From contig VXQO01000031.1 in the NCBI GenBank assembly GCA_009838975.1, forward strand, positions 1 to 59,356: 59,356 bases of DNA, read 5' to 3'. The position numbers and the translations under genes are program-made. The stretch comes from Gemmatimonadota bacterium. GTDB lineage: Bacteria > Gemmatimonadota > Gemmatimonadetes > Longimicrobiales > Gaopeijiaceae. Below the pieces are notes generated by a model, which searched no databases, was not told the DNA's origin, and saw only the letters and a program-made list of their open reading frames with translations. Shown piece after piece: positions 47,243 through 59,356 of this stretch (positions are counted from its first letter, which is position 1; every line of letters starts with the position of its first letter).

Positions 47243-48478
47243 TCATCCGCCGCCCAGGTCCTCCACATCGGCCAGTCCTTCCCAGTCAACGGAAAGCACC
47301 TCGATGTCGTGTTTTCGGACACCGATTTCGTGCTTGATCAGCAAGTCGATGAGCTTCTTCCCATCGATGAGCGTAATCGGTGCCGCGCCCTGAGCGAAGG
47401 CGTCTTTCTTGGCCCCGCGAGCAAAACCGGAGGTCGTGACAATGGTGCCCCTCACCGCCTCGAACTTGAAGAGCGAACCCCGAAGCGCCGCCACGTCCTT
47501 CGCCTGAATGGTCCTCTTGTGGCGCTTGACTTGAACCACCTCGCGGACCGATGTGACGCCGAGTTCGATTTCCGCCACCACGTCAACCCCACCGTCGCCG
47601 GACTGGCCGGTCACCTCGACGTTTTCGTAATCCATCGCTTCCAGCACCCGGGCGACGAGGTGTTCGAAGGCGTATGGATCCATCTGAAGGAGGTGCTTGT
47701 GGAGGTCTTGTCGGACGGCGGCTTCTCGCTTCCTCGTCATGTTGCGGATGGCCTCTAGCTCGTCACCGAGGCGCGGCGGGGCAACGCGCTCCAAGTACTG
47801 GAGTCCCGTCTCGGTGACCGTGTACTTCAGGCGATTTCGGTTGATGAGGCGTCGGGCGAGGAGATTGCGGAGGCGACTGCTCAGCGTGCCACGGATGGTT
47901 GACGGCGAACGGAAGCCCGAACGTCGTTTGAGGAACTCGGCCCACGGATCAAGAAGAGCGCCACGCTGTGCCGGGCCGCTGTCGGCGAGGATCACGAGGA
48001 GTTCGATTGCCCCTTCCTGTAGGTCGAGAAGCGCCTCGGCCTCCCCAAACTCGTGGTCGATGAAGTCGCGGCCGCGCTCGGTCAATCGGAGATTCCCGTT
48101 ACCACCATCTACGAGCAGCCGGTACTTCTGGCTGAGGATCCAAGGCCCCGCCGTGTAGCGGGGATTGACCGACTTGCCGCTCTCCTTCCAGATCGCCAAA
48201 GCTAGCTTGAGGTCCTCCCCCTTGAGCTTCGCTCGAATCCACGAATCCGGATCTTGCCAATCGACGGGGTTCTGGGGGTTTCCGCGAAGCTCGGCCAGCC
48301 TTTTGTGGAGACCGGTAACGTGCGACTTCGTGAATCCGGGCCAGATCCGGAGTAGGTGCCGCAACTCGCCATAGACTGGAAACCACGGAACGCGGACGCG
48401 CCGTCCGCTGCCATCAGGTGCGGCCCTGCCAGTCTCCTCCACGGAGTACCTTTTCCAAGTATGAACGTTGGTATCCAA
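47243..48478 (-). CDS. Mrr-type restriction endonuclease with N-terminal winged-helix region
   Basis: This is a 411-residue protein. The first 235 residues look like winged-helix DNA-reading modules (LRLTERGRDFIDHE; LLARRLINRNRLKYTVTETGLQYLE). The C-terminal Mrr_cat nuclease domain starts at YAFEHLVARVLEAMDYENVEVTG (about 269) and shows the catalytic set GDGGVDVVAEIE (D299) and VVQVKRHK (Q316-x-K318). Such enzymes cut modified DNA. The start is TTG at 48478, with poor Shine-Dalgarno support; a GTG at 48442 preceded by AAAAGG is an alternative. It is carried by the island and probably acts as a defence gene. Confidence 0.85.
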   Translation of the reverse strand: MDTNVHTWKRYSVEETGRAAPDGSGRRVRVPWFPVYGELRHLLRIWPGFTKSHVTGLHKRLAELRGNPQNPVDWQDPDSWIRAKLKGEDLKLALAIWKESGKSVNPRYTAGPWILSQKYRLLVDGGNGNLRLTERGRDFIDHEFGEAEALLDLQEGAIELLVILADSGPAQRGALLDPWAEFLKRRSGFRSPSTIRGTLSSRLRNLLARRLINRNRLKYTVTETGLQYLERVAPPRLGDELEAIRNMTRKREAAVRQDLHKHLLQMDPYAFEHLVARVLEAMDYENVEVTGQSGDGGVDVVAEIELGVTSVREVVQVKRHKRTIQAKDVAALRGSLFKFEAVRGTIVTTSGFARGAKKDAFAQGAAPITLIDGKKLIDLLIKHEIGVRKHDIEVLSVDWEGLADVEDLGGG

Positions 48479-48888
48479 GGTAAGGGATTGCGCCGAAGTG
48501 TGCTGTCGGGCGGTGGCGGTACAGGCGGGGGAGTGAAGCGGTGCTGGATCGAGCTTGCCGTGAGTTCAAGAGCGGAAAAGCAACGGCTGGCTCACGCCCT
48601 TTAAGGGGCGTCAGCCAGCCGACGCAGTGTTGAACACCACTGCGGTCTGGCAAGGGGGCTGTGCCCCCTAGAACCCCCCTGATTGTCGGCGCTCTGGCGG
48701 AGTTCGCGGTGGGAGGCCTCCCATCCCATCCCGGCGGCAGCCAGTCGGCCACATGCGGAGGATTGTGTCCAGCCTTCCGTTTCGCCGCGCCGAATGGTGC
48801 GAGGGGGCTGGCCTCCGGCGTATCATGACTGACTGTTGGAACGAAGCCGAAGGGCGATCACATCAGAAACAGCGACCATGGAGAGACG
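48479..48888. repeat. gene-free stretch with strong hairpins between the two nuclease genes
   Basis: This 410-base divergent gap has no convincing gene. It contains a long hairpin (CGGCTGGCT 48584-48592 with AGCCAGCCG 48613-48621, and inside it ACGCCC with GGGCGT around a TTTAAG turn), and a second one (GGGGGC-TGT-GCCCCC near 48654-48668). Promoters of both nuclease genes must lie here. Confidence 0.55.
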
Positions 48889-50250
48889 ATGGACCGGAAG
48901 GCAACGGATGCGATGACACGGGATGAGGAGCTGGACAGGCTGGTCGGCGATTCGAGATTCCTGCGGTATCACGAGAAGTATGTGAAGCCCCGTGAGTTCA
49001 ACGCCTTCGACGTGCTGCGCTACGCGGAGTACGAAATCCGCCACAGCAATGTGATTGCCTGGCTGCTGGATCCCGCCGGGACCCACGGAATTGACCGAAG
49101 GTTCCTGGAGTGGTTTGTGGACCGGGCGAGGCTGCCGGGGGAGTTGCCCCCCGAGATCGTCCGCGGCGACGGCGGGCAGACGGTGCGGGTGGCGCGGGAG
49201 CTGTACTATGTGGACGTGACGATCTTCCTTGAGAGCGATCGGGGCCGGCACATCGTCGCGGTCGAGAACAAGCCGTCGCCGGCTTCGCCGGAGCACTACG
49301 AGCAGGCGCGGGCACACCTGGAGCGCTTGCGCCCCAAGTACTCGGGCCACAGGCACCACGGCGTGCTGCTCTCCACCTCGCGGAAGGGAATCGAGGGGGA
49401 GGACAGGCATCCGGAGGACCCGATTGCGCATGTGAGCTGGCGGGATGTGGGCGTGCAAATCAAGACGATGATCGGTGAGGGCGCCTTCGGGGATAGGAAC
49501 GTGGCCGCCTTCATCCGCCAATACCTCGTGGCGGTCGGCCGGCTGATCGGCCCGGAGGAGAGCGACACGGACTACTTCAGGCAGCTGCTGGACGACCACC
49601 ATTCGCTGCTGAAGCACATGTCCGGCGCGCTCGGCGAAGAGCGGGGCGAGCACAAGGTCCGGGAGATGGTGCCGGACGGTCATGCGCACTACCGCGACAC
49701 CGTAGTGCGGCTGGTGAAGGACTTCCGGCAGGAGCCGGGGCGGTTGCGTGACGAGGTTCGCGACCTGCTGACGAGTCGGGGGATCGAGACGACGATCCGG
49801 GGGCCCTGGCTGAACTGGGAGCTGGAAGCGGCTCCGGCGCTGGGGATTCCTTGGTGTATCCGGTGGGTCCTGGACTTCCAGTATCGCCAGATCAGTGTAT
49901 GCCTGGAGGTTCCGTCGCATTGCCGGAACAAGGAGGCTGTGAAAGACCTGCTGGCTTTCGTGCGCGAAAGGCCGATCGACCGTCGTCGCCGCGAGAGGTA
50001 CCCGATGAGGGCCGATGGATACGGCTACTACCACGTCTTTAACCACGAACTCGTCGCCGACGAAATCCTCTCCGGAAAGTCAGCCGAGGAGGTCACGGAG
50101 GCCGTGCTGCATGCGGTTACCGAATTCCTGAAGGCGGAGGACTCGGACTACACGCGCATCAACGACTATTTCCAGTGCCTGGCATTTCGGCCTGAGGCGG
50201 CGGTGGCCACCGAGCCGACGGCCGCGGCGGTGGCGGAGGAAGCGAAGTAG
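48889..50250 (+). CDS. PD-(D/E)XK nuclease superfamily protein
   Basis: This is a 453-residue protein of the PDDEXK_4-like group. The N-terminal part has the typical EIRHSNVIAWLLDPAGTHGIDRRFLEWFV block; the nuclease core follows as LYYVDVTIFLESDRGRHIVAVENKPSPASPEHYEQARAHLERL (about 103-147), with D in YVDVTIF and E-x-K in VENKP as catalytic residues. The C-terminal 250 residues are unassigned and include a segment GPWLNWELEAAPALGIPWCIRWVLDFQYRQ resembling a substrate-binding beta fold, as in bacterial defence nucleases. GGAGAG lies 4 bases before the ATG. It diverges from the Mrr gene. Confidence 0.78.
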   Translation: MDRKATDAMTRDEELDRLVGDSRFLRYHEKYVKPREFNAFDVLRYAEYEIRHSNVIAWLLDPAGTHGIDRRFLEWFVDRARLPGELPPEIVRGDGGQTVRVARELYYVDVTIFLESDRGRHIVAVENKPSPASPEHYEQARAHLERLRPKYSGHRHHGVLLSTSRKGIEGEDRHPEDPIAHVSWRDVGVQIKTMIGEGAFGDRNVAAFIRQYLVAVGRLIGPEESDTDYFRQLLDDHHSLLKHMSGALGEERGEHKVREMVPDGHAHYRDTVVRLVKDFRQEPGRLRDEVRDLLTSRGIETTIRGPWLNWELEAAPALGIPWCIRWVLDFQYRQISVCLEVPSHCRNKEAVKDLLAFVRERPIDRRRRERYPMRADGYGYYHVFNHELVADEILSGKSAEEVTEAVLHAVTEFLKAEDSDYTRINDYFQCLAFRPEAAVATEPTAAAVAEEAK

Positions 50251-50732
50251 GGCGATACTCGCGGTCAGCCTTGTACATCTCGATGCCTCCGCGCCGAGGT
50301 CGATGCCGGACCGGGAGTCGCGCCCCCGGTGCCGGCCCGCCACTGGTCCGGGCCGTTGCGACCACCTCGGTCGCGCTTTCGGGGATCGAAGGGGCGGAGC
50401 CCTTCGTCAGCCTCCGTGTTATACACGTGGTATGCTGGCTTGACCACCTTAGCGTGGTCCAAGCCAGCCCAGCGGAGCCGCCGAAACGCCGCTCCGGGCA
50501 CCGCCCGGAACAACTCCCCGCGAGCCATCGCGGGCAAGCTCCACCGCCATCTTGTCGCCGGTCTCACCGATGGCGAGGACGACGGCGACGCGCTCTGGTG
50601 AGCCCCGCTTCCCCCCTACCCGTACCCCTCGGAGACCCGAGATCGTCGCTCCTGGGCCATCCTATGACCCGTAGATCACCCGAAAAGCCTCTGGGGACCC
50701 CCGCAACGGCCTCTGAGCCGGTCGTGGGACCG
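50251..50732. other. gene-free stretch with a hairpin, before the integrase gene end
   Basis: In these 482 bases I find no convincing gene; open frames here have no recognisable content. A strong hairpin is present: GCTGGCTTG (50434-50442) and ACCAC (50443-50447) pair with GTGGT (50454-50458) and CAAGCCAGC (50460-50468) with a single bulged C and a 6-base loop. A smaller CCGGGC-ACC-GCCCGG hairpin follows near 50495. They could be terminators for the nuclease gene or sites for recombination functions. Confidence 0.5.
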
Positions 50733-51956
50733 TCAGGTCTCGGTGCCCATTCTCCGGCCCGCGAGATACGCTTCCCAGTCGGCCATGAGCCGACGCCGCC
50801 GCTCGAACAGGTCGGTGCGCCGGTACGCCGCCTCCACCTTGCTCTTGACCACGTGCGCCAGCGCCGCCTCGACCACCTCCCGGGGATGGTCGGTCTTCTC
50901 CGCCGCCCAGTCCCGGAACGACGACCGGAACCCGTGCGGCACCGCCGCGATCCCGTGCTTCCTCAAGAGCCGGTTAAGCCGCTTCCCGTCCAGCACCTTC
51001 CCGCGCTCGTTCACGAACACGACCGGATTCTTCCCGCCCTCCAGCTTTCGGGCCGCATCCAGAATCTCCAGTGCCCGCTCGCACAGCGGCACCCGCTGCT
51101 CGCGCCCGGTCTTCATCCGGGTTGCCGGAATCGTCCACACGCCCGACTCTTGATCCATCTCGCTCCACACCGCGCCACGGACCTCGGCGCCCCGCGCCGC
51201 CGTCAACACGAGGAACTCGAAGGCCAACGTGTCCACCCTCCCCGGATCCGCCGCCCGCACCTTCGCGACGGCCGCGGCGACCTCGCCGTGAGGCAGGGCC
51301 TTGTGGTGGGTGACGACATCGTGCTGCGGACCCAGCAGGTGAAGAATCCGGTCGCAGGGGTTGTCCGTCCTCCATTCCATGGCGATGGCCCACTCCAAGA
51401 CCGCCCGGATGCGCATATGCACGAACCGGGCCGTGGGACCCATGGTGTGCCAGATCGGGGTGAGGATCTCCAGCACGTCGCCGCTCGTGACCTCCGAGAC
51501 GGCCACGTCACCGATGCGGGGGAAGGCGTGAATCTCCAAGTTGCGGAACCATTCCTTCGCGTACGCCGCGCTTCGCCACCCGGCCCGCTTCTGCTCGACG
51601 ACGAGCTTCGAGGCCTCGGCGAAGGTGGGGATGCCGACCAGCCGCCGCTTCTCGGCCAAGGGATCGCCGCCCGAACGGGCGAGCTTGCGGTTGGCGAGCG
51701 CCTGCTCGCGGGCCTCGGCAAGCGAGACCAGTTCGACGCTTCCGAGCCCGAGCTCGCGCTTGCGTCCCCGGATGACGAGGCGTTGAATCCAACTGCGTGT
51801 TCCGGTCTTCTGGACGTAGAGGTAGAGTCCGTTCCCGTCGCAGTGTCTTCCGGGCGGAGCGGAGCGCACGAAGGGGGCCGAGAGCCGCTTGTGGGGATGG
51901 CGGCCCCTGGGCTTGCCTCGCGGGCGTTTCGTGGGGGAAGTGTTACCATTATCCAT
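50733..51956 (-). CDS. tyrosine-type integrase with DUF4102 arm domain
   Basis: This is a 407-residue P4-type site-specific recombinase. It has a DUF4102-like N-terminal arm-binding domain (GLYLYVQKTGTRSWIQRLVI, KRELGLGSVELVSLAEAREQAL), a core-binding domain, and a catalytic domain with Arg in TAARGAEVRGAVW, H-x-x-R in VPHGFRSSFRDWAAE, a further His in EAALAHVVKSKVEAAYRR, and the nucleophile Tyr in that same AAYRRTD segment. It should insert and excise the island by recombining the 12-bp att cores; the right copy lies 152 bases from its start codon. Most P4-type integrases use tRNA genes, but no tRNA is found here. Confidence 0.93.
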   Translation of the reverse strand: MDNGNTSPTKRPRGKPRGRHPHKRLSAPFVRSAPPGRHCDGNGLYLYVQKTGTRSWIQRLVIRGRKRELGLGSVELVSLAEAREQALANRKLARSGGDPLAEKRRLVGIPTFAEASKLVVEQKRAGWRSAAYAKEWFRNLEIHAFPRIGDVAVSEVTSGDVLEILTPIWHTMGPTARFVHMRIRAVLEWAIAMEWRTDNPCDRILHLLGPQHDVVTHHKALPHGEVAAAVAKVRAADPGRVDTLAFEFLVLTAARGAEVRGAVWSEMDQESGVWTIPATRMKTGREQRVPLCERALEILDAARKLEGGKNPVVFVNERGKVLDGKRLNRLLRKHGIAAVPHGFRSSFRDWAAEKTDHPREVVEAALAHVVKSKVEAAYRRTDLFERRRRLMADWEAYLAGRRMGTET

Positions 51957-52501: not shown

Positions 52502-52741
52502 GGGCGCATGGGGTTGGGGGCGTGCACGGCGGGTGTAGGGGTGGACGGAAGCTTACTGCACCTCGGCGCGGGCGACAAACGGAGGCCGTGGCCGGGACAT
52601 GGGCACGGGGAGGGGGGAGGGTCGGGTCGTGGGCCCGGCCTGGTCGCAGCCCGTCGCGACGGCGAGCGCACGGCAGACCTGCGCCATCGTGCCGTCGTCC
52701 TGCTTGACATGCGGCTCCCGCGCCTTGACTATTAGGGCCTT
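52502..52741. other. gene-free stretch before the his leader
   Basis: These 240 bases run from the DUF3311 start to the leader peptide. A possible promoter for the his operon is TTGACA at 52704-52709 with GACTAT 17 bases further (52727-52732). The -35 is perfect and the -10 weak. Nothing else is recognised. Confidence 0.45.
52704..52732 (+). promoter_or_regulatory. putative his operon promoter
   Basis: TTGACA and GACTAT are spaced by 17 bases and lie just before the leader peptide start codon (52742), so the transcript would start almost at the ATG. A second possible -10 (TATTAG, 52730-52735) has an overlong spacing of 20. Confidence 0.45.
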
Positions 52742-52804
52742 ATGAACGCTCGCGCCCGTACCCCACACCATCATCACGGCCACTCCGGAGAGGCGGCCGC
52801 GTGA
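52742..52804 (+). CDS. hisL: his operon leader peptide
   Basis: This 20-residue peptide starts at ATG 52742 and reads MNARARTP-HHHH-GH-SGEAAA, ending in TGA. Codons 9-12 and 14 are His: five of six consecutive codons. It lies directly before a hairpin-plus-T-run and hisG, the classical arrangement in which stalling of the ribosome at His codons, when charged tRNA-His is short, prevents the terminator from forming. It is too short for usual gene finding. Confidence 0.85.
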   Translation: MNARARTPHHHHGHSGEAAA

Positions 52805-52839
52805 CGGTGTAGCCGTACGAAAGCACGGGATACCCCAAA

Positions 52840-52871
52840 CGCCGGCTTCCTCGGGAGGTCGGCGCTTTTTT
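52840..52871 (+). terminator. his attenuator (intrinsic terminator)
   Basis: CGCCGGCTTCC (52840-52850) pairs with GGAGGTCGGCG (52854-52864), 11 pairs including two G-T, around a 3-base loop, followed by C and six T (52866-52871). It lies 35 bases after the leader peptide stop and 50 bases before hisG. The leader segment GAGAGGCGGC near 52787 could pair with the left arm as an antiterminator. Confidence 0.85.
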
Positions 52872-52920: not shown

Positions 52921-53838
52921 ATGAACGGTACAGTGTTGAACAATCGGCGCGCGGAAGCGCGGATGGAGCCGTCCGCTGGCCGCGCCATTCGCATCGGGCT
53001 GCCGAAGGGGCACATGCAGGGCGGAGTGTTCGCACTGCTCGCCGACGCGGGGATCGATGTCCGCGTGGGGTCGCGCAACTACCGGCCCGTGCTCTCGTGG
53101 CCCGGATTCGAGGCCAAGCTGCTCAAGCCGCAGAACGTGGTCAAGATGCTGCACGCCGGGTCGAGGGATGTCGGGTTCGCCGGGGCGGACTGGGTCGCCG
53201 AGCTGGGCGCCGACCTGGTCGAGCTGCTGGATACCGGACTCGATCCGGTGCGGGTGGTGGCGGCCGCGCCCGAGGCGCTGCTCGACGGCGGGTCGCTCCC
53301 CGCCGGACGCCGCCTGGTCGTGGCGACCGAGTACGTGAGGGTGGTGGAGCGATGGTCGCGGGATCGGCCGTTCGAGACGGTCGTGGTGCGGTCGTACGGG
53401 GCGACCGAGGTGTTCCCGCCCGAGGACGCCGACCTCATCGTGGACAACACCGCGACGGGAGCGACGCTACACGGAAACGGCCTCGTCGTCACGGACACGC
53501 TCATGCTCTCCTCGACCCGGTTGTACGCCAACCCTGCCGCCCTTGAAGACCCGGGCGGACGGGCCCGGATCGACGATCTCGTTCTCCTCCTCCAATCGGT
53601 GCTCGAAGCGCGGCGGCGGGTGATGCTGGAGTTGAACGTCTCGCAGGAGGATTTCGAGCGGGTTGTTTCCATTCTGCCCTGCATGCGCGAGCCCACGGTG
53701 TCACGGCTGCACGGCGAGAGCGGGTACGCGGTGCGCGCGGCGGTGCCCAGGACGGCGCTGCCGGCGCTGCTGCTCGAGGTGAAGGCGCGGGGCGGAACGG
53801 ACCTGGTCGTGTCGGAACCGCAGCAGATCGTGCCATGA
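52921..53838 (+). CDS. hisG: ATP phosphoribosyltransferase, long form
   Basis: This 305-residue enzyme joins ATP and PRPP, the first step of histidine synthesis. Substrate-binding parts include RIGLPKGHMQ, the periplasmic-binding-like fold with DVGFAGADWVAELG, and the PRPP loop ADLIVDNTATGATLHGNGL. About 80 residues follow the catalytic part (LELNVSQEDFERVVSILPCMREPTVSRLHG, ALPALLLEVKARGGTDLVVSEPQQIVP), the ACT-like regulatory domain of the long form, so feedback inhibition by histidine is expected. AGGAGA lies before the ATG at 52921. Its stop overlaps the next start (ATGA). Confidence 0.95.
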   Translation: MNGTVLNNRRAEARMEPSAGRAIRIGLPKGHMQGGVFALLADAGIDVRVGSRNYRPVLSWPGFEAKLLKPQNVVKMLHAGSRDVGFAGADWVAELGADLVELLDTGLDPVRVVAAAPEALLDGGSLPAGRRLVVATEYVRVVERWSRDRPFETVVVRSYGATEVFPPEDADLIVDNTATGATLHGNGLVVTDTLMLSSTRLYANPAALEDPGGRARIDDLVLLLQSVLEARRRVMLELNVSQEDFERVVSILPCMREPTVSRLHGESGYAVRAAVPRTALPALLLEVKARGGTDLVVSEPQQIVP

Positions 53839-55520
53839 GCGGGGCCATGAAGGGGCCCATGCGGGACGTCATCGACCTGAGCATGAACGAGGGCGAGCCG
53901 CCGCCCCGGGAGTGTTTCGACGTGCTGGAGCGCGTCGGGCCCGGGATTCTGCGCAAATACGCGGATCCGCAGCCGCTGGAGGAGGCCTACGCGGCGTACC
54001 TGGGCACCGACCCCGCGAACGTGCTGGCCACGACGGGCGGGGACGACGCCATCGATCGCGTGTTCCGCGCGTTTCTGGCGCCGGATCAGGAGATGGTCTT
54101 CCCGACGCCCACCTTCGAGATGATTCCGGCGTGCGCGCGCATGGCGCGGGGGACACTGGTACCGGTCGAATACGAGTGGGGAACGCTGCCGCACGACGAC
54201 ATTCTCGCGGCGGTGAACGAGCGGACGGGCGTGGTGGCGGTGCTCACGCCGGACAATCCGACGGGGCGGGCGTTCACGACCCGTGAGTTGCTCCGGCTCG
54301 CGGACGCGCTGCCGCCCGAGGTGGTTCTGCTCGTCGACTCGGCGTATGCGGAGTTTGCCGAAGAGGACCACACGGCGGCGCTGCTCGAGGTGCCGCGAGC
54401 GGTCATGATCCGCACGATGTCGAAATCGTGGGGGCTGGCGGGGATGCGGGTCGGCTTCGCGGTCGGGGCGAAGGAGCGGATCGACGTGCTGCGCGGCTTC
54501 GGGGGTCCTTATGCGCTGACCGGCCCCTCGGTCGCGATCGCGCTGGACCGGCTGCGGAACGGCGTCGACGAGATGCGCAGGTTCGTGGAGTACGTGCGGT
54601 CGCGGCGGGAGCGGCTGGCCGAGGTGATCCTGGGGATCGGCGGGGAGCCGCAACCGTCGCAGACCAACTTCGTGTTCTCGTCGTTTCCTGACGCGCGCTG
54701 GATCCAGCGTGGGATGGCGGCGCAGGGGGTCCTGGTGAGGTGCTTCCCGCACCTGCCGGAGTACGTGCGGATGACGGTGCCGCGGGATGACGGCGAGTTC
54801 CGCCGCGCGGAACGGGCGCTCGGGTGCCTGGCGGGCGGGGGGCCGGAGGCGCTGCTCTTCGACATGGACGGGGTGCTGGCCGACGTGCGGCGGTCGTACC
54901 GGGAGGCGATCGTGCGGACGTGCGCCTCGTTCGGTGTGGAGGCCGGGCACGAGCTGATCAGCGCGGTCAAAGCGGCCGGGAGCGCCAACGACGACTGGGC
55001 GGTGACGCATCGGGTGCTCGCGGGCGCGGGGGTCGAGGCCTCGCTGGCCGAGGTGACGGCGCGGTTCGAGGAGGTCTACCAGGGTACGGAGGACGCGCCG
55101 GGACTGCGGCGGCATGAGACGCTGATTCCGTCGCGTGAGCTGCTCGAGGAGCTGGCGCGGTCGTTCAGGCTCGGGATCGTGACCGGGAGGCCGCGGGCCG
55201 ACGCCGAGCGGTTCCTGCGGGAGCACGGAGTGCGGGGGTGCTTCAGTGCGGTGGTCTGCCGCGAGGACGGGCCGCTCAAGCCCGATCCGGCGCCGGTGCG
55301 GATCGCCCTGGAGCAGCTGGAGGCGCGGACCGCGTGGATGCTGGGCGACACCCCCGACGATGTGCGGGCGGCGGTGGGGGCGGGAGTGGTCCCGGTCGGC
55401 GTGGTGCCGCCGGGGCAGACCGAGGACGAGGCGGCGGGCGCATGGGCCGCGCTCGAAGGTGCGGGCGCCGCGCGCGTCGTGGAGGCCGACGCCGAACTTG
55501 GAGGATTGTTCGATGGGTGA
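53835..55520 (+). CDS. hisC: fusion of histidinol-phosphate aminotransferase (HisC) and HAD phosphatase
   Basis: This is a 561-residue fusion. Residues 1 to about 333 are HisC: NEGEPPPRE, YADPQPLEEAYAAYLG, TPDNPTGRAF, VDSAYAEF and the PLP lysine in TMSKSWGLAGMRVGF (near 197). From about 336 a HAD phosphatase follows: LLFDMDGVLADV (nucleophile Asp), IVTGRPRADAERFL (motif II), KPDPAPVRIAL (motif III lysine) and MLGDTPDDVRAAVGAG (motif IV). The HAD part resembles a subgroup seen in his clusters of archaea and cyanobacteria. It is very likely the histidinol-phosphate phosphatase, giving consecutive steps in one chain. No separate phosphatase gene is seen in the operon. Confidence 0.88.
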   Translation: MSGAMKGPMRDVIDLSMNEGEPPPRECFDVLERVGPGILRKYADPQPLEEAYAAYLGTDPANVLATTGGDDAIDRVFRAFLAPDQEMVFPTPTFEMIPACARMARGTLVPVEYEWGTLPHDDILAAVNERTGVVAVLTPDNPTGRAFTTRELLRLADALPPEVVLLVDSAYAEFAEEDHTAALLEVPRAVMIRTMSKSWGLAGMRVGFAVGAKERIDVLRGFGGPYALTGPSVAIALDRLRNGVDEMRRFVEYVRSRRERLAEVILGIGGEPQPSQTNFVFSSFPDARWIQRGMAAQGVLVRCFPHLPEYVRMTVPRDDGEFRRAERALGCLAGGGPEALLFDMDGVLADVRRSYREAIVRTCASFGVEAGHELISAVKAAGSANDDWAVTHRVLAGAGVEASLAEVTARFEEVYQGTEDAPGLRRHETLIPSRELLEELARSFRLGIVTGRPRADAERFLREHGVRGCFSAVVCREDGPLKPDPAPVRIALEQLEARTAWMLGDTPDDVRAAVGAGVVPVGVVPPGQTEDEAAGAWAALEGAGAARVVEADAELGGLFDG

Positions 55521-56112
55521 CGAGGCGAGAACCGCGGGCGTGAGCCGCGAGACGGGGGAGACCCGGGTCGAGGTCCGGCTGGACCTGGACGGCGTTGGAG
55601 CGGTCGAGGTGAGTACCGGGATCGGCTTCTTCGACCACATGCTGCACGCCCTGGCCTTCCACGCGGGGTGGAGCCTGGAGCTCAAGTGCGAAGGCGATCT
55701 GGAGGTCGACGACCACCACACGGTCGAAGACACCGGACTGGCGCTGGGGCAGACGGTCGCGCGCGCGCTGGGTGAGCGGCGGGCGGGCATCGTGCGCTTC
55801 GGGCATGCGTATGCCCCGCTTGACGAGGCGCTGGCGCGCGCGGTCGTGGATGTATCCGGGCGCCCGTTCTTCGCCGGCGATCTCGACCTGCGGCGGGAGC
55901 GGGTGGGTGCGCTGTCGTGCGAGATGGTTCCGCACTTCTTCCACTCGTTCGCACAGACCGCCGGCCTGACGCTGCATGTGAACGTGATCCACGGAGCCAA
56001 CGACCACCACCGCATCGAGGCGTCCTTCAAGGCGCTGGCGCTGGCGCTGCGGGACGCGCTGGCGCTGCGGGAAGGCGGGAAGGGCGTACCGTCCACGAAG
56101 GGCGTGCTTTGA
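55513..56112 (+). CDS. hisB: imidazoleglycerol-phosphate dehydratase
   Basis: This is a 199-residue monofunctional IGPD, which turns imidazole glycerol phosphate into imidazole acetol phosphate. The Mn-binding repeats are GFFDHMLHALAFHAG and DDHHTVEDTGLALGQ in the first half, and FFHSFAQTAGLTLHV and GANDHHRIEASFKALA in the second half. No phosphatase domain is fused to it, which fits the phosphatase being fused to HisC just upstream. It overlaps the hisC fusion by 8 bases and hisH by 4. Confidence 0.96.
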   Translation: MGDEARTAGVSRETGETRVEVRLDLDGVGAVEVSTGIGFFDHMLHALAFHAGWSLELKCEGDLEVDDHHTVEDTGLALGQTVARALGERRAGIVRFGHAYAPLDEALARAVVDVSGRPFFAGDLDLRRERVGALSCEMVPHFFHSFAQTAGLTLHVNVIHGANDHHRIEASFKALALALRDALALREGGKGVPSTKGVL

Positions 56113-56723
56113 GCGGGCGCGCCCGCGCGGTAACCGTAGTGCGCACCAGCACGGCCAACCTGGCCTCGGTGCTGACGGGATTCGAGCGCCTGGGCTGCAC
56201 GGTTCGCACCACGGCCGACCCCGGCGAGGTCGCGGCGGCCGACCGCCTGGTGCTTCCCGGAGTCGGTGCCTTCGCGGCGGCCCGGCGCGCCATCGCGTCG
56301 CACGGCCTGGAGGACGCGCTGCGCGAGCGCATCCAGCGCGGCCACCCCACCTTGGGCATCTGTCTCGGAATGCAGCTGATGGCTCACGGCAGCGAGGAGG
56401 CGCCCGGCGTCGCCGGCCTCGGAGTGCTCGACGGCGTCGTGGGCAGCTACGAGAGCGGAGAGGAGGGGTGGCGCGTCCCCCAGATGGGCTGGAACCTGGT
56501 GACCCCGGCCGAGGGGTGCGAAATCGTGCCTCGGGGCTACGCCTACTTCGCCAACTCCTACCGCCTCACGGCCGCCCCCGGCGACTGGCTGCCGGTCTGG
56601 TGCGAGTACGCCGGCCGTTTCCTGGCGGCGGTCGAGCGCGGTCCGGTGGTCGGCTGCCAGTTCCACCCGGAGCTCTCGGGCGACTACGGCAAGGCGCTGC
56701 TGACGCGCTGGCTGGAGGCCTGA
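56109..56723 (+). CDS. hisH: imidazole glycerol phosphate synthase, glutamine amidotransferase subunit
   Basis: This is a 204-residue class I glutaminase that feeds ammonia to HisF. The nucleophile Cys is in LGICLGMQLMAHGSEE (near residue 83), and the catalytic His and Glu in VVGCQFHPELSG. PGVGAFAAAR near 50 is the oxyanion-side loop. The start is TTG at 56109, overlapping the hisB stop (TTGA); the sequence reads straight into the family N-terminus (VTVVRTSTANLASVLTGFERLG). The hisF gene begins 4 bases downstream. Confidence 0.94.
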   Translation: MSGRARAVTVVRTSTANLASVLTGFERLGCTVRTTADPGEVAAADRLVLPGVGAFAAARRAIASHGLEDALRERIQRGHPTLGICLGMQLMAHGSEEAPGVAGLGVLDGVVGSYESGEEGWRVPQMGWNLVTPAEGCEIVPRGYAYFANSYRLTAAPGDWLPVWCEYAGRFLAAVERGPVVGCQFHPELSGDYGKALLTRWLEA

Positions 56724-56727
56724 GCGG

Positions 56728-57549
56728 ATGCTTCCCGTGCGCATCATCCCCTGCCTCGACGTACGCGACGGACGGGTCGTGAAGGGTGTGAAGTTCCGGG
56801 GATTGACGGATCAGGGCGACCCGGCGGCACTGGCGCGCGCCTACGAGGAACAGGGGGCCGACGAGGTTGTCGTGCTGGATGTGACGGCCACCCCGGAACG
56901 GCGCGGCACGCGCCTCGACACGGTGGCTGCCGTGCGGGCCCGCCTGTCGGTGCCGCTCACCGTCGGGGGCGGGATCGGCGGGATCGAGGATGCGGCGGCG
57001 CTCCTGGAGGCCGGCGCGGACAAGGTCGCCGTGAACACGGCGGCGCTGCGGCGTCCCGCGCTGCTGACCGACCTGGCCGCGAGGTTCGGGTCGCAGTGCG
57101 TGGTGGCTTCGATCGACGCGCTGGGAAGCGGCGGTGGTGGACGGGGCGGCGACAGCGGCTACGAGGTCGTGGTGCGCTCGGGCACCGAACGGGTCGCGCG
57201 CGACGCGGTGGCGTGGGCGCGGGAAGCGGTGGAGCGCGGGGCGGGCGAGATCCTGCTGACCAGCATCGACCGGGACGGCACGCGCAGCGGGTACGAGCTG
57301 GTGCTGCTGCGCGCGGTGCGTTCCGTCGTGCACGTGCCGATCGTCGCGTCGGGAGGCGCCGACTCTCCCGAACACATGGCCGACGCCGTTCGCGCCGGGG
57401 CCGACGCGGTGCTGGCCGCGTCGATCTTCCATCAGGGCAACTGGACCGTGGAAGGGGTGAAGGCGGCGCTGACGGGGCTGGGAGTGTCGGTGCGGCCGGG
57501 GTACTCGGGCGTCGGGGAGACGGCCCGCACCGTAGAGGGGGCGGCATGA
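56728..57549 (+). CDS. hisF: imidazole glycerol phosphate synthase, cyclase subunit
   Basis: This is a 273-residue (beta-alpha)8 barrel that makes imidazole glycerol phosphate and AICAR with HisH. Catalytic aspartates are in IIPCLDVRDGRVVKG (near residue 11) and LLTSIDRDGTRSGY (near 180). The phosphate sites are VTATPERRG/TVGGGIGG and IVASGGADS/LAASIFH. A glycine-rich insertion (GSGGGGRGG) lies in the loop after SIDA. Its stop overlaps the next start (ATGA). Confidence 0.96.
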   Translation: MLPVRIIPCLDVRDGRVVKGVKFRGLTDQGDPAALARAYEEQGADEVVVLDVTATPERRGTRLDTVAAVRARLSVPLTVGGGIGGIEDAAALLEAGADKVAVNTAALRRPALLTDLAARFGSQCVVASIDALGSGGGGRGGDSGYEVVVRSGTERVARDAVAWAREAVERGAGEILLTSIDRDGTRSGYELVLLRAVRSVVHVPIVASGGADSPEHMADAVRAGADAVLAASIFHQGNWTVEGVKAALTGLGVSVRPGYSGVGETARTVEGAA

Positions 57550-58817
57550 TCATCCCGTCGATCGACCTCATGGACGGGCAGGCCGTGCAGCTGGTGCAGG
57601 GCCGCCGCAAGGTGCTCGAGGCGGGCGATCCGCGTCCTCTCGCCGCGCGCTTCGGCCGCGTGGGCGAGGTGGCGGTGGTGGACCTGGACGCGGCGCTGGG
57701 GCGCGGCGACAACACCGCCGTGATCGAGGAGCTGTGCCGGGTGGTGCCGTGCCGGGTGGGCGGCGGCATACGCGACCGGGACGGGGCGCTCGAATGGCTG
57801 GACCGCGGCGCCGCGAAGGTCGTTCTCGGCACCGCGGCCGTCCCGGAGGTGCTGGAAGGGCTGCCGCGCGACCGGGTCGTGGCCGCGCTGGACGCCTGGG
57901 AGGGCGAAGTCGTCGTCAAGGGGTGGACCGAGCGCACGGGACGCACCGTGTACGACGGCATGCGCGAACTGCGCGGCCTCGCGGGCGGCTTCCTCGTCAC
58001 TTTCGTCGAGGGAGAAGGCAGGGAGAGCGGCTTCCCGCGCGAGCAGATCGCGCCGCTCGTGGAAGCCGCCGGCACGTCGCGCCTGACCGTCGCCGGGGGG
58101 ATCACCACCGCCGACGAGATTGCGTGGCTGGACCGCTGCGGCGCCGACGCCCAGGTGGGGATGGCGCTCTACCGCGGCAACCTCGACCTGGCCGAGGCGT
58201 TCACGGCGCCGCTCCGTAGCGAACGGCCCGACGGGCTCTGGCCCACCGTCGTCACCGACGACCGCGGCGGCGCGCTCGGCCTGGTCTGGTCGAGCCCGGA
58301 GAGCGTGCGTACGGCGATCGACGAAGGCATCGGCGCGTACCACTCCCGCTCGCGGGGGCTCTGGCGCAAGGGCGCGACATCGGGCGCCACCCAGGCGCTG
58401 GTGCGCATCGAGCCCGACTGCGACCGCGACGCGCTCCGCTTCACGGTCGCGCAGGCGGGCGACGGGTTCTGCCACACCGGCGACTGGACCTGCTTCGGCC
58501 CGGCCCGCGGGCTGCGCAAGCTGGAACGGACGGTGAAGTCGCGCAGGGCCGAGGCGGTGCCCGGGTCGCTGACGAGCCGGCTGCTCGAGGACGGCGCCTT
58601 CCTGGGGGGCAAGCTCGTCGAGGAGGCCGGTGAACTGGGGCGGGCCTCGGGGGTACAGCGGGTCGTCGAGGAAGCGGCCGACGTGATGTACTTCCTGAGC
58701 GTCGCGTTGGAGCGTGCGGGGGCCAGCCTGGTCGAGGTGGAAAGGGAGCTCGACCGCAGGAGCCTCAGGGCGAAGCGAAGGGTGGCGTCGGCGCCGAAGG
58801 GAGCGGCTGGTGAGTGA
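57546..58817 (+). CDS. fusion of HisA, HisI and HisE
   Basis: This is a 423-residue three-enzyme chain. Residues 1 to about 225 are a HisA barrel (ProFAR isomerase): IIPSIDLMDGQAVQLVQG, VDLDAALG, VGGGIRDRDGALEW and TVAGGITTADEIAWL. The usual TDxxxDG motif is replaced by LVTFVEGEGRESG, so it belongs to a divergent HisA branch. About 230-320 is HisI (cyclohydrolase): VWSSPESVRTAIDEG, YHSRSRGLWRKGATSG, PDCDRDALRF, CHTGDWTCF. From about 335 is HisE (pyrophosphohydrolase): GKLVEEAGELGRA, VVEEAADVMYFLSVALERAG. Three steps (in order HisE, HisI, HisA) of one pathway are thus linked in a single polypeptide. Confidence 0.9.
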   Translation: MIIPSIDLMDGQAVQLVQGRRKVLEAGDPRPLAARFGRVGEVAVVDLDAALGRGDNTAVIEELCRVVPCRVGGGIRDRDGALEWLDRGAAKVVLGTAAVPEVLEGLPRDRVVAALDAWEGEVVVKGWTERTGRTVYDGMRELRGLAGGFLVTFVEGEGRESGFPREQIAPLVEAAGTSRLTVAGGITTADEIAWLDRCGADAQVGMALYRGNLDLAEAFTAPLRSERPDGLWPTVVTDDRGGALGLVWSSPESVRTAIDEGIGAYHSRSRGLWRKGATSGATQALVRIEPDCDRDALRFTVAQAGDGFCHTGDWTCFGPARGLRKLERTVKSRRAEAVPGSLTSRLLEDGAFLGGKLVEEAGELGRASGVQRVVEEAADVMYFLSVALERAGASLVEVERELDRRSLRAKRRVASAPKGAAGE

Positions 58818-59356
58818 GGGGCGCAGGGGAGCAGGTACGACGGATTGTGGCGCGGGGCCGTCGCGCGTGCGGTTGAGACGGGTCGCGGCGGCCGATGTGG
58901 GCCGCGCACGCCAGCCAGCCGTGCCGCCCGACATCATCCCGGCCGTGCTCGAGATCATCGACGCCGTGAAGAGGGGTGGGGAGGCGGTACTGCGCGAATA
59001 CGCGGAGCGGTACGACGGTCTCGAAGCCGGCGGGGCGCTGGTGCGGACACGCGCCGAGATGGAGGCGGCACTCGCATCGCTTCCCGCGGCCGACCGCGAG
59101 GTGCTGGAGCGCGCCGCGGGCCGGATCGAGCACTTTGCCCAGGCCCAGTTGGAGTCGGGCGAGCCGGTGGCCGTGGCGGTGGAGGGGGGCATGGCCGGCG
59201 ACCGGGTGGTGCCCGTCGGCGTGGCCGGGTGCTACGCGCCGGGAGGGCGGTTCCCGCTGCCTTCGTCCGTGCTGATGACGGCCGTGACCGCCAGGGTGGC
59301 CGGGGTGCGTGAGGTGTGGCTGGCCTCGCCGAGACCGTCCCGCGAGGTCATGGCGG
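58810..59356 (+). CDS. hisD: histidinol dehydrogenase, N-terminal part (cut by window end)
   Basis: This gene starts at GTG 58810, overlapping the previous gene by 8 bases, and runs off the window after about 182 codons. The visible part reads as HisD: IIDAVKRGGEAVLREYAERYDG, AAGRIEHFAQAQ and VVPVGVAGCYAPGGRFPLPSSVLMTAVTARVAG, the conserved nucleotide-fold segment. HisD oxidises histidinol to histidine in two steps. The first 40 residues include a nonconserved stretch, and a later GTG is possible as start. The zinc-binding and catalytic His residues lie beyond the window. Confidence 0.88.
   Translation, partial: MSEGRRGAGTTDCGAGPSRVRLRRVAAADVGRARQPAVPPDIIPAVLEIIDAVKRGGEAVLREYAERYDGLEAGGALVRTRAEMEAALASLPAADREVLERAAGRIEHFAQAQLESGEPVAVAVEGGMAGDRVVPVGVAGCYAPGGRFPLPSSVLMTAVTARVAGVREVWLASPRPSREVMA

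What the first reader, a model, noticed from the sequence alone, without database searches (positions are those of the whole stretch)
52742..52871. Classical histidine attenuator with an HHHHGH leader peptide in a non-enteric operon
A 20-codon ORF with five His codons, a terminator with six T residues and a possible antiterminator precede hisG. Attenuation by His-rich leaders is best known in Proteobacteria; its presence with this fused operon layout is informative about how widespread the mechanism is. The gene is too short for annotation pipelines.
Basis: partly seen in the sequence, partly recalled or inferred. Interest (0 to 1): 0.62.

Follow-up and report, generated by a model that had tools for sequence, protein, structure and literature searches.

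The report
Leaderless histidine attenuator before hisG
A tiny histidine-rich gene and a switchable RNA stop signal sit in front of the histidine-making genes of a Gemmatimonadota bacterium, a classic self-regulating switch that is widespread in this phylum and in others where it was hardly known, and whose tiny gene appears to start at the very first base of the messenger RNA.

Summary
52742-52804 encodes MNARARTPHHHHGHSGEAAA (20 codons, 5 His). An 11-bp terminator with T6 (52840-52871) follows, then hisG (52921). Folding gives a 1:2 hairpin over the His codons (52757-52819), an antiterminator (52784-52856) that consumes the terminator's 5' arm, and the terminator: the classical ribosome-mediated attenuator. 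(2) In most of them the promoter lies directly against the leader ATG (TTGAC, 17 nt, nANNNT, 5-9 nt, ATG) without Shine-Dalgarno, so the leader mRNA is predicted leaderless, unlike E. coli hisL. (3) No Rfam family recognises those tested. Mechanism: known. Initiation mode and distribution: apparently new for histidine. No transcript data were available; start site, termination and histidine response are inferred.

The parts
52704..52709 (+). -35 promoter element TTGACA
   Evidence: sequence; TTGAC(A/C/G) 17-18 nt before the -10 in genus and order relatives
52727..52732 (+). -10 element GACTAT (mostly GANNAT in the genus, TANNNT elsewhere in the phylum), 17 nt after the -35 and 9 nt before the leader ATG; predicts a transcription start at or within 3 nt of the ATG
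52742..52804 (+). leader peptide gene hisL, MNARARTPHHHHGHSGEAAA, TGA stop; predicted leaderless
   Evidence: conserved in relatives, alignment A3
52766..52783 (+). control codons CAC CAT CAT CAC GGC CAC (HHHHGH)
52757..52819 (+). 1:2 (anti-antiterminator / pause) hairpin that contains the His codons, -28.2 kcal/mol
   Evidence: 81% of cells paired in 17 genomes, no covariation
52784..52856 (+). antiterminator; core GAGG-GGCCGCGU (52790-52802) pairs with ACGCCGGCUUCCUC (52839-52852); -32.7 kcal/mol
   Evidence: core helix 98% paired over 17 genomes
52840..52871 (+). intrinsic terminator CGCCGGCTTCC-TCG-GGAGGTCGGCG followed by CTTTTTT
   Evidence: terminator present in 23 of 23 genus/order relatives tested
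52921..53838 (+). hisG, first structural gene (AGGAG-type Shine-Dalgarno upstream)
   Evidence: TIGR00070, PF01634, PF08029
53835..55520 (+). hisC fused to a HAD-family phosphatase domain
55246..56112 (+). ORF holding hisB (residues 94-288)
55917..56723 (+). ORF holding hisH (residues 72-267)
56728..57549 (+). hisF
57096..58817 (+). ORF holding hisA fused to hisIE (residues 151-556)
58945..59340 (+). 5' part of hisD, cut by the contig end (the rest matches contig C132)

Best explanation
A ribosome-mediated transcription attenuator that senses charged tRNA-His and controls the hisG-hisC/HAD-hisB-hisH-hisF-hisA/IE-hisD operon. RNA polymerase starts at, or within about 3 nt of, the leader AUG, so a ribosome loads on a leaderless 5' end (inferred). 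With plentiful His-tRNA it runs to the UGA at 52802. There it covers segment 2 (52790-52816), the antiterminator cannot form, and the terminator 52840-52871 stops transcription. When His-tRNA is scarce it stalls in HHHHGH (52766-52783) and melts the 1:2 hairpin. Segment 2 (GAGGCGGCCGCGU) then pairs with segment 3 (ACGCCGGCUUCCUC), the terminator's own 5' arm, and polymerase reads into hisG. Shown here: the sequence elements, their conservation and the mutually exclusive predicted folds. Inferred: the start site, termination in vivo, and the response to histidine.
For: Leader, terminator and antiterminator at the expected places. With the ribosome modelled at the first His codon the antiterminator is the minimum-energy fold of RNA up to 52857 (-35.0); at the stop codon it is lost (-12.4). 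Conserved in 17 of 18 same-genus genomes with hisG: core antiterminator helix 98% paired, a terminator in every aligned genome, in four of them rebuilt in a shifted register. Survey: leaders in 75 of 110 genomes across the phylum (48 of 49 in family f5) and 44 of 76 regions of the cross-phylum set (0.05 expected). Terminators after 66 of 72 and 33 of 45 of these leaders (5.7 and 4.3 expected). In 121 of 123 leader-terminator pairs, stalling at His sequesters at least 60% of the terminator 5' arm. Leaderless: nANNNT plus a -35 at leaderless spacing before 96% (genus/order), 83% (phylum) and 58% (named cross-phylum set) of leader ATGs against 4% of other ATGs; Shine-Dalgarno-like motifs in 0-8% against 13%.
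Against: No transcript or starvation data; Gemmatimonas start-site data were sought and not found. The -10 (GACTAT) matches consensus in 3 of 6, and a plain sigma-70 scan finds no promoter. Covariation is weak because the genus sequences are too similar; the 1:2 hairpin is not supported beyond chance by covariation. The at-stop model often still pairs part of the terminator arm, though much less stably. One same-genus genome (G008, L013) shows no leader, with only 248 nt of contig upstream of the hisG match.
Confidence: 0.92

Rival explanations
1. A classical His attenuator whose leader is normally leadered: the real promoter lies further upstream and the TTGACA/GACTAT pair is coincidental.
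For: The -10 is a poor consensus match and a plain promoter scan finds nothing; E. coli hisL has its promoter further upstream, with an untranslated leader.
Against: The -35/17 nt/-10/5-9 nt/ATG arrangement is kept in nearly all relatives while sequence further upstream diverges; 96% and 83% of leaders against 4% of control ATGs. Leader ATGs have fewer Shine-Dalgarno-like motifs than background.
Confidence: 0.12
2. A T-box or other tRNA- or metabolite-binding riboswitch senses histidine or tRNA-His directly, and the small ORF is incidental.
For: T-boxes regulate his genes in Firmicutes and Actinobacteria (PMC9413887).
Against: No T-box or any other cis-regulatory Rfam family at gathering threshold in the window or in 20 related loci. 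His-rich ORFs recur with different flanking RNA sequence in many phyla in the leader-terminator arrangement.
Confidence: 0.03
3. The ORF is a chance His run or a His-rich metal-binding micropeptide, and the hairpin is only the terminator of an upstream transcript.
For: His-rich peptides can bind metals; short ORFs are common.
Against: 0.05 expected against 44 observed in hisG upstream regions; mostly followed by a terminator with a competing antiterminator that overlaps the ORF end; peptide sequence outside the His run varies freely between families.
Confidence: 0.02

Closest known systems
E. coli / Salmonella his operon attenuator (hisL; Rfam His_leader)
   Same: His-codon run in a short ORF before hisG, overlapping alternative hairpins, intrinsic terminator ahead of hisG
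   Different: E. coli hisL (MTRVQFKHHHHHHHPD) has its promoter further upstream and so an untranslated 5' leader (sequence; promoter position from general knowledge). No Rfam match to the window or to 20 relatives. Leader here is 20 codons with HHHHGH, and predicted leaderless.
His attenuators predicted in Firmicutes (B. cereus group, Peptostreptococcaceae, Erysipelotrichales; PMC9413887; hisS/hisZ leaders in Bacillus, PMC2965389)
   Same: His-rich leader peptide, terminator and antiterminator upstream of his genes
   Different: Different phylum; leaderless start not reported in the passages read
Leaderless leader peptides of Streptomyces lividans (LeuL, TrpL1, IlvL; PMC8079986)
   Same: Attenuator leader peptide transcribed without a 5' UTR; TTGACn / TAnnnT promoter directly before the start codon
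   Different: No histidine leader there; Seliverstov et al. 2005 found no conserved RNA structure before his operons in Actinobacteria (PMC1262725)
T-box proposed before hisD in Corynebacterium glutamicum (PMC3896937)
   Same: Transcription attenuation of his genes sensing tRNA-His
   Different: Direct tRNA binding without a leader peptide; no T-box here

Membership tests
Ribosome-mediated histidine attenuator | short ORF with clustered His codons between promoter and first his gene | tested here: met
Ribosome-mediated histidine attenuator | intrinsic terminator between leader and first structural gene | tested here: met
   no in vivo 3' ends available
Ribosome-mediated histidine attenuator | antiterminator mutually exclusive with the terminator and freed by a ribosome at the His codons | tested here: met
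   (predicted folds, conserved pairing)
Ribosome-mediated histidine attenuator | 1:2 hairpin covering the His codons | tested here: inconclusive
   predicted at -28.2 kcal/mol; 81% of cells paired, no covariation
Ribosome-mediated histidine attenuator | premature termination relieved by histidine starvation | not testable with these tools
   needs RNA-seq or a reporter
Rfam His_leader / enterobacterial hisL | match to the covariance model | tested here: not met
Rfam His_leader / enterobacterial hisL | leadered mRNA ahead of hisL | tested here: not met
   promoter directly abuts the ATG, no Shine-Dalgarno, unlike E. coli; prediction only
T-box | match to the T-box model | tested here: not met
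Leaderless mRNA | transcription start at or within a few nt of the start codon | tested here: inconclusive
   promoter spacing predicts it; no 5'-end mapping

The most novel reading that the evidence does not exclude
Outside enteric bacteria and Firmicutes, the common form of the histidine attenuator is leaderless: promoter and leader start codon are fused, so translation of hisL begins on the first bases of the nascent RNA and needs no Shine-Dalgarno. The same design recurs in Gemmatimonadota, Planctomycetota, Spirochaetota, Acidobacteriota, Actinomycetota, Bacteroidota and Myxococcota. It is kept both with the window's HisG and with a HisG type only about 30-35% identical.
Probability: 0.65. 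Interest if true: 0.62.

Novelty: new variant of a known kind. Interest (0 to 1): 0.5.

Why it matters
It extends histidine attenuation to phyla where it has hardly been described and where Rfam sees nothing, and gives more than 100 examples. If the leader is truly leaderless, loading of the ribosome is tied to the first moment of transcription, which would make transcription-translation coupling, the timing requirement of attenuation, testable in phyla with little molecular work. It also identifies a family of real small genes that annotation misses.

Tried and rejected
Rfam at gathering and relaxed thresholds: no leader or T-box match; the relaxed hits are chance. General attenuation in this genome: trpE has no leader detected, and no ilvB or leuA reaches its family cut-off, so histidine appears special among those tested. 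Misoriented pairwise alignment discarded; one search failed for the same strand error. Covariation as proof of the 1:2 hairpin rejected. The coarse terminator detector (21 of 44) was superseded, as it missed terminators such as those of L032 and L033.

Full report
Check of the observation. The ORF at 52742-52804 reads MNARARTPHHHHGHSGEAAA with five His codons. It is followed by an 11-bp terminator stem (52840-52850 with 52854-52864) and CTTTTTT to 52871. hisG follows (TIGR00070 and PF01634), with ATG at 52921 and its own AGGAG. Every item in the finding is correct. The downstream genes are hisC fused to a HAD phosphatase, hisB, hisH, hisF, hisA fused to hisIE, and the start of hisD at the contig end.

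Where it comes from. The window is a contig of a 4.5-Mb genome. Contigs of same-genus genomes have the lengths of named Gemmatimonadota records (for example G003:C31 and JAPPGZ010000100.1, both 37302 bases). The organism is therefore a Gemmatimonadota species. One 90%-identical locus filed as Chloroflexi (L032) carries the same kind of leader and is probably mis-binned (inference).

Alternative folds. Three mutually exclusive structures are predicted: a 1:2 hairpin at 52757-52819 (-28.2 kcal/mol), an antiterminator at 52784-52856 (-32.7) and the terminator hairpin (-19.6). With a ribosome footprint masked at the first His codon, the antiterminator is the best fold of RNA extending to 52857 (-35.0). 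With the ribosome at the stop codon it is lost (-12.4). This is the classical logic.

Conservation. Of the 18 genomes of this genus in which hisG was found (the window's included), 17 have the leader. The exception, G008, has only 248 nt of contig ahead of the hisG match. The alignment A3 shows near-invariant antiterminator arms; the core helix is paired in 98% of cells. The terminator is in register in 87% of cells, and four genomes form it in a shifted register, still with a T-run. The 1:2 hairpin is plausible but gets no covariation support. Order-level relatives whose HisG is only 30-35% identical also have His-rich leaders, such as MSYRFAQHRHHAHHHGPAGRDGGV.

Distribution. From a phylum-wide HisG search, 110 upstream regions were read; 75 have a His-rich leader: 48 of 49 in family f5, 13 of 23 in the window's family, 3 of 3 in f2, 7 of 20 in f4, 3 of 5 in f7, 1 of 1 in f8, 0 of 9 in f3, f6 and f10. 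Some negatives have short upstream sequence. A separate named set from many phyla gave 44 of 76, against 0.05 expected from shuffles and none on the reverse strand. A HisG tree shows leaders spread over many branches (Planctomycetota, Spirochaetota, Bacteroidota, Acidobacteriota, Actinomycetota, Armatimonadota, Myxococcota), while some clades, such as the Alphaproteobacteria/Geminicoccaceae group, show none. Names of MAG records may be wrong in places, so the phylum list is approximate. A few genomes are in two sets (for example L033 = G003). Terminators follow 23 of 23, 66 of 72 and 33 of 45 leaders in the three sets, against 1.3, 5.7 and 4.3 expected.

Leaderless start. In the window the spacing is TTGACA, 17 nt, GACTAT, 9 nt, ATG, so transcription should start 0-3 nt before the ATG. 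Across the sets (genus/order, phylum, named cross-phylum), an nANNNT element with a -35 at such spacing precedes 96%, 83% and 58% of leader ATGs, against 4% of 1060 other ATGs in the same regions. Shine-Dalgarno-like motifs are at 0%, 8% and 4%, against 13%. The start among in-frame candidates was chosen by best promoter, which favours the result, but using the last ATG instead changes the figures little (83%, 81%, 60%). E. coli hisL has its promoter further upstream. Leaderless attenuator peptides are known for Leu, Trp and Ilv leaders in Streptomyces (PMC8079986), but I found none reported for histidine.

Literature and novelty. His attenuators are described in Proteobacteria and predicted in Firmicutes (PMC9413887, PMC2965389); no conserved structure was found before Actinobacterial his operons in 2005 (PMC1262725). 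Searches combining attenuation with Gemmatimonadetes, or with Planctomycetes and Acidobacteria, gave no description of histidine attenuators there. Two key comparative papers (Vitreschak 2004, Lopatovskaya 2010) were seen only as citations, so absence of prior prediction is not proven.

Verdict. New are the phylum-wide occurrence, the spread to several other phyla, and the predicted leaderless leader. The last rests on promoter spacing alone.

Noticed in passing
53835-55520: hisC fused to a C-terminal HAD-family phosphatase domain, possibly supplying histidinol-phosphatase on the aminotransferase chain instead of on HisB.
   Followed up: no
57096-58817: hisA fused in one frame to hisI and hisE (PF00977, PF01502, PF01503), apparently a trifunctional protein.
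   Followed up: no
52921-53838; L020-L031: The window's HisG is only about 30-35% identical to HisG of most other genera in its order but about 60% identical to HisG of other phyla, yet both types sit under His leaders: hisG seems to have been exchanged beneath or together with an attenuator.
   Followed up: partly
47243-51956: Next to the his operon: a phage-type integrase (50733-51956, -), an Mrr-like restriction endonuclease (47243-48478, -) and a PD-(D/E)XK nuclease-like ORF (48889-50250, +); perhaps an integrated island.
   Followed up: no
58945-59356: hisD is cut by the contig end; its remainder matches G000 contig C132:6-731.
   Followed up: yes
L222, L223, L224: trpE of this genome has no leader peptide detected, and no ilvB or leuA reaches its family cut-off, suggesting missing branched-chain synthesis.
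   Followed up: partly
L032: A record named Chloroflexi carries a hisG 90% identical to the window's with the same kind of leader: probably a mis-binned contig.
   Followed up: no
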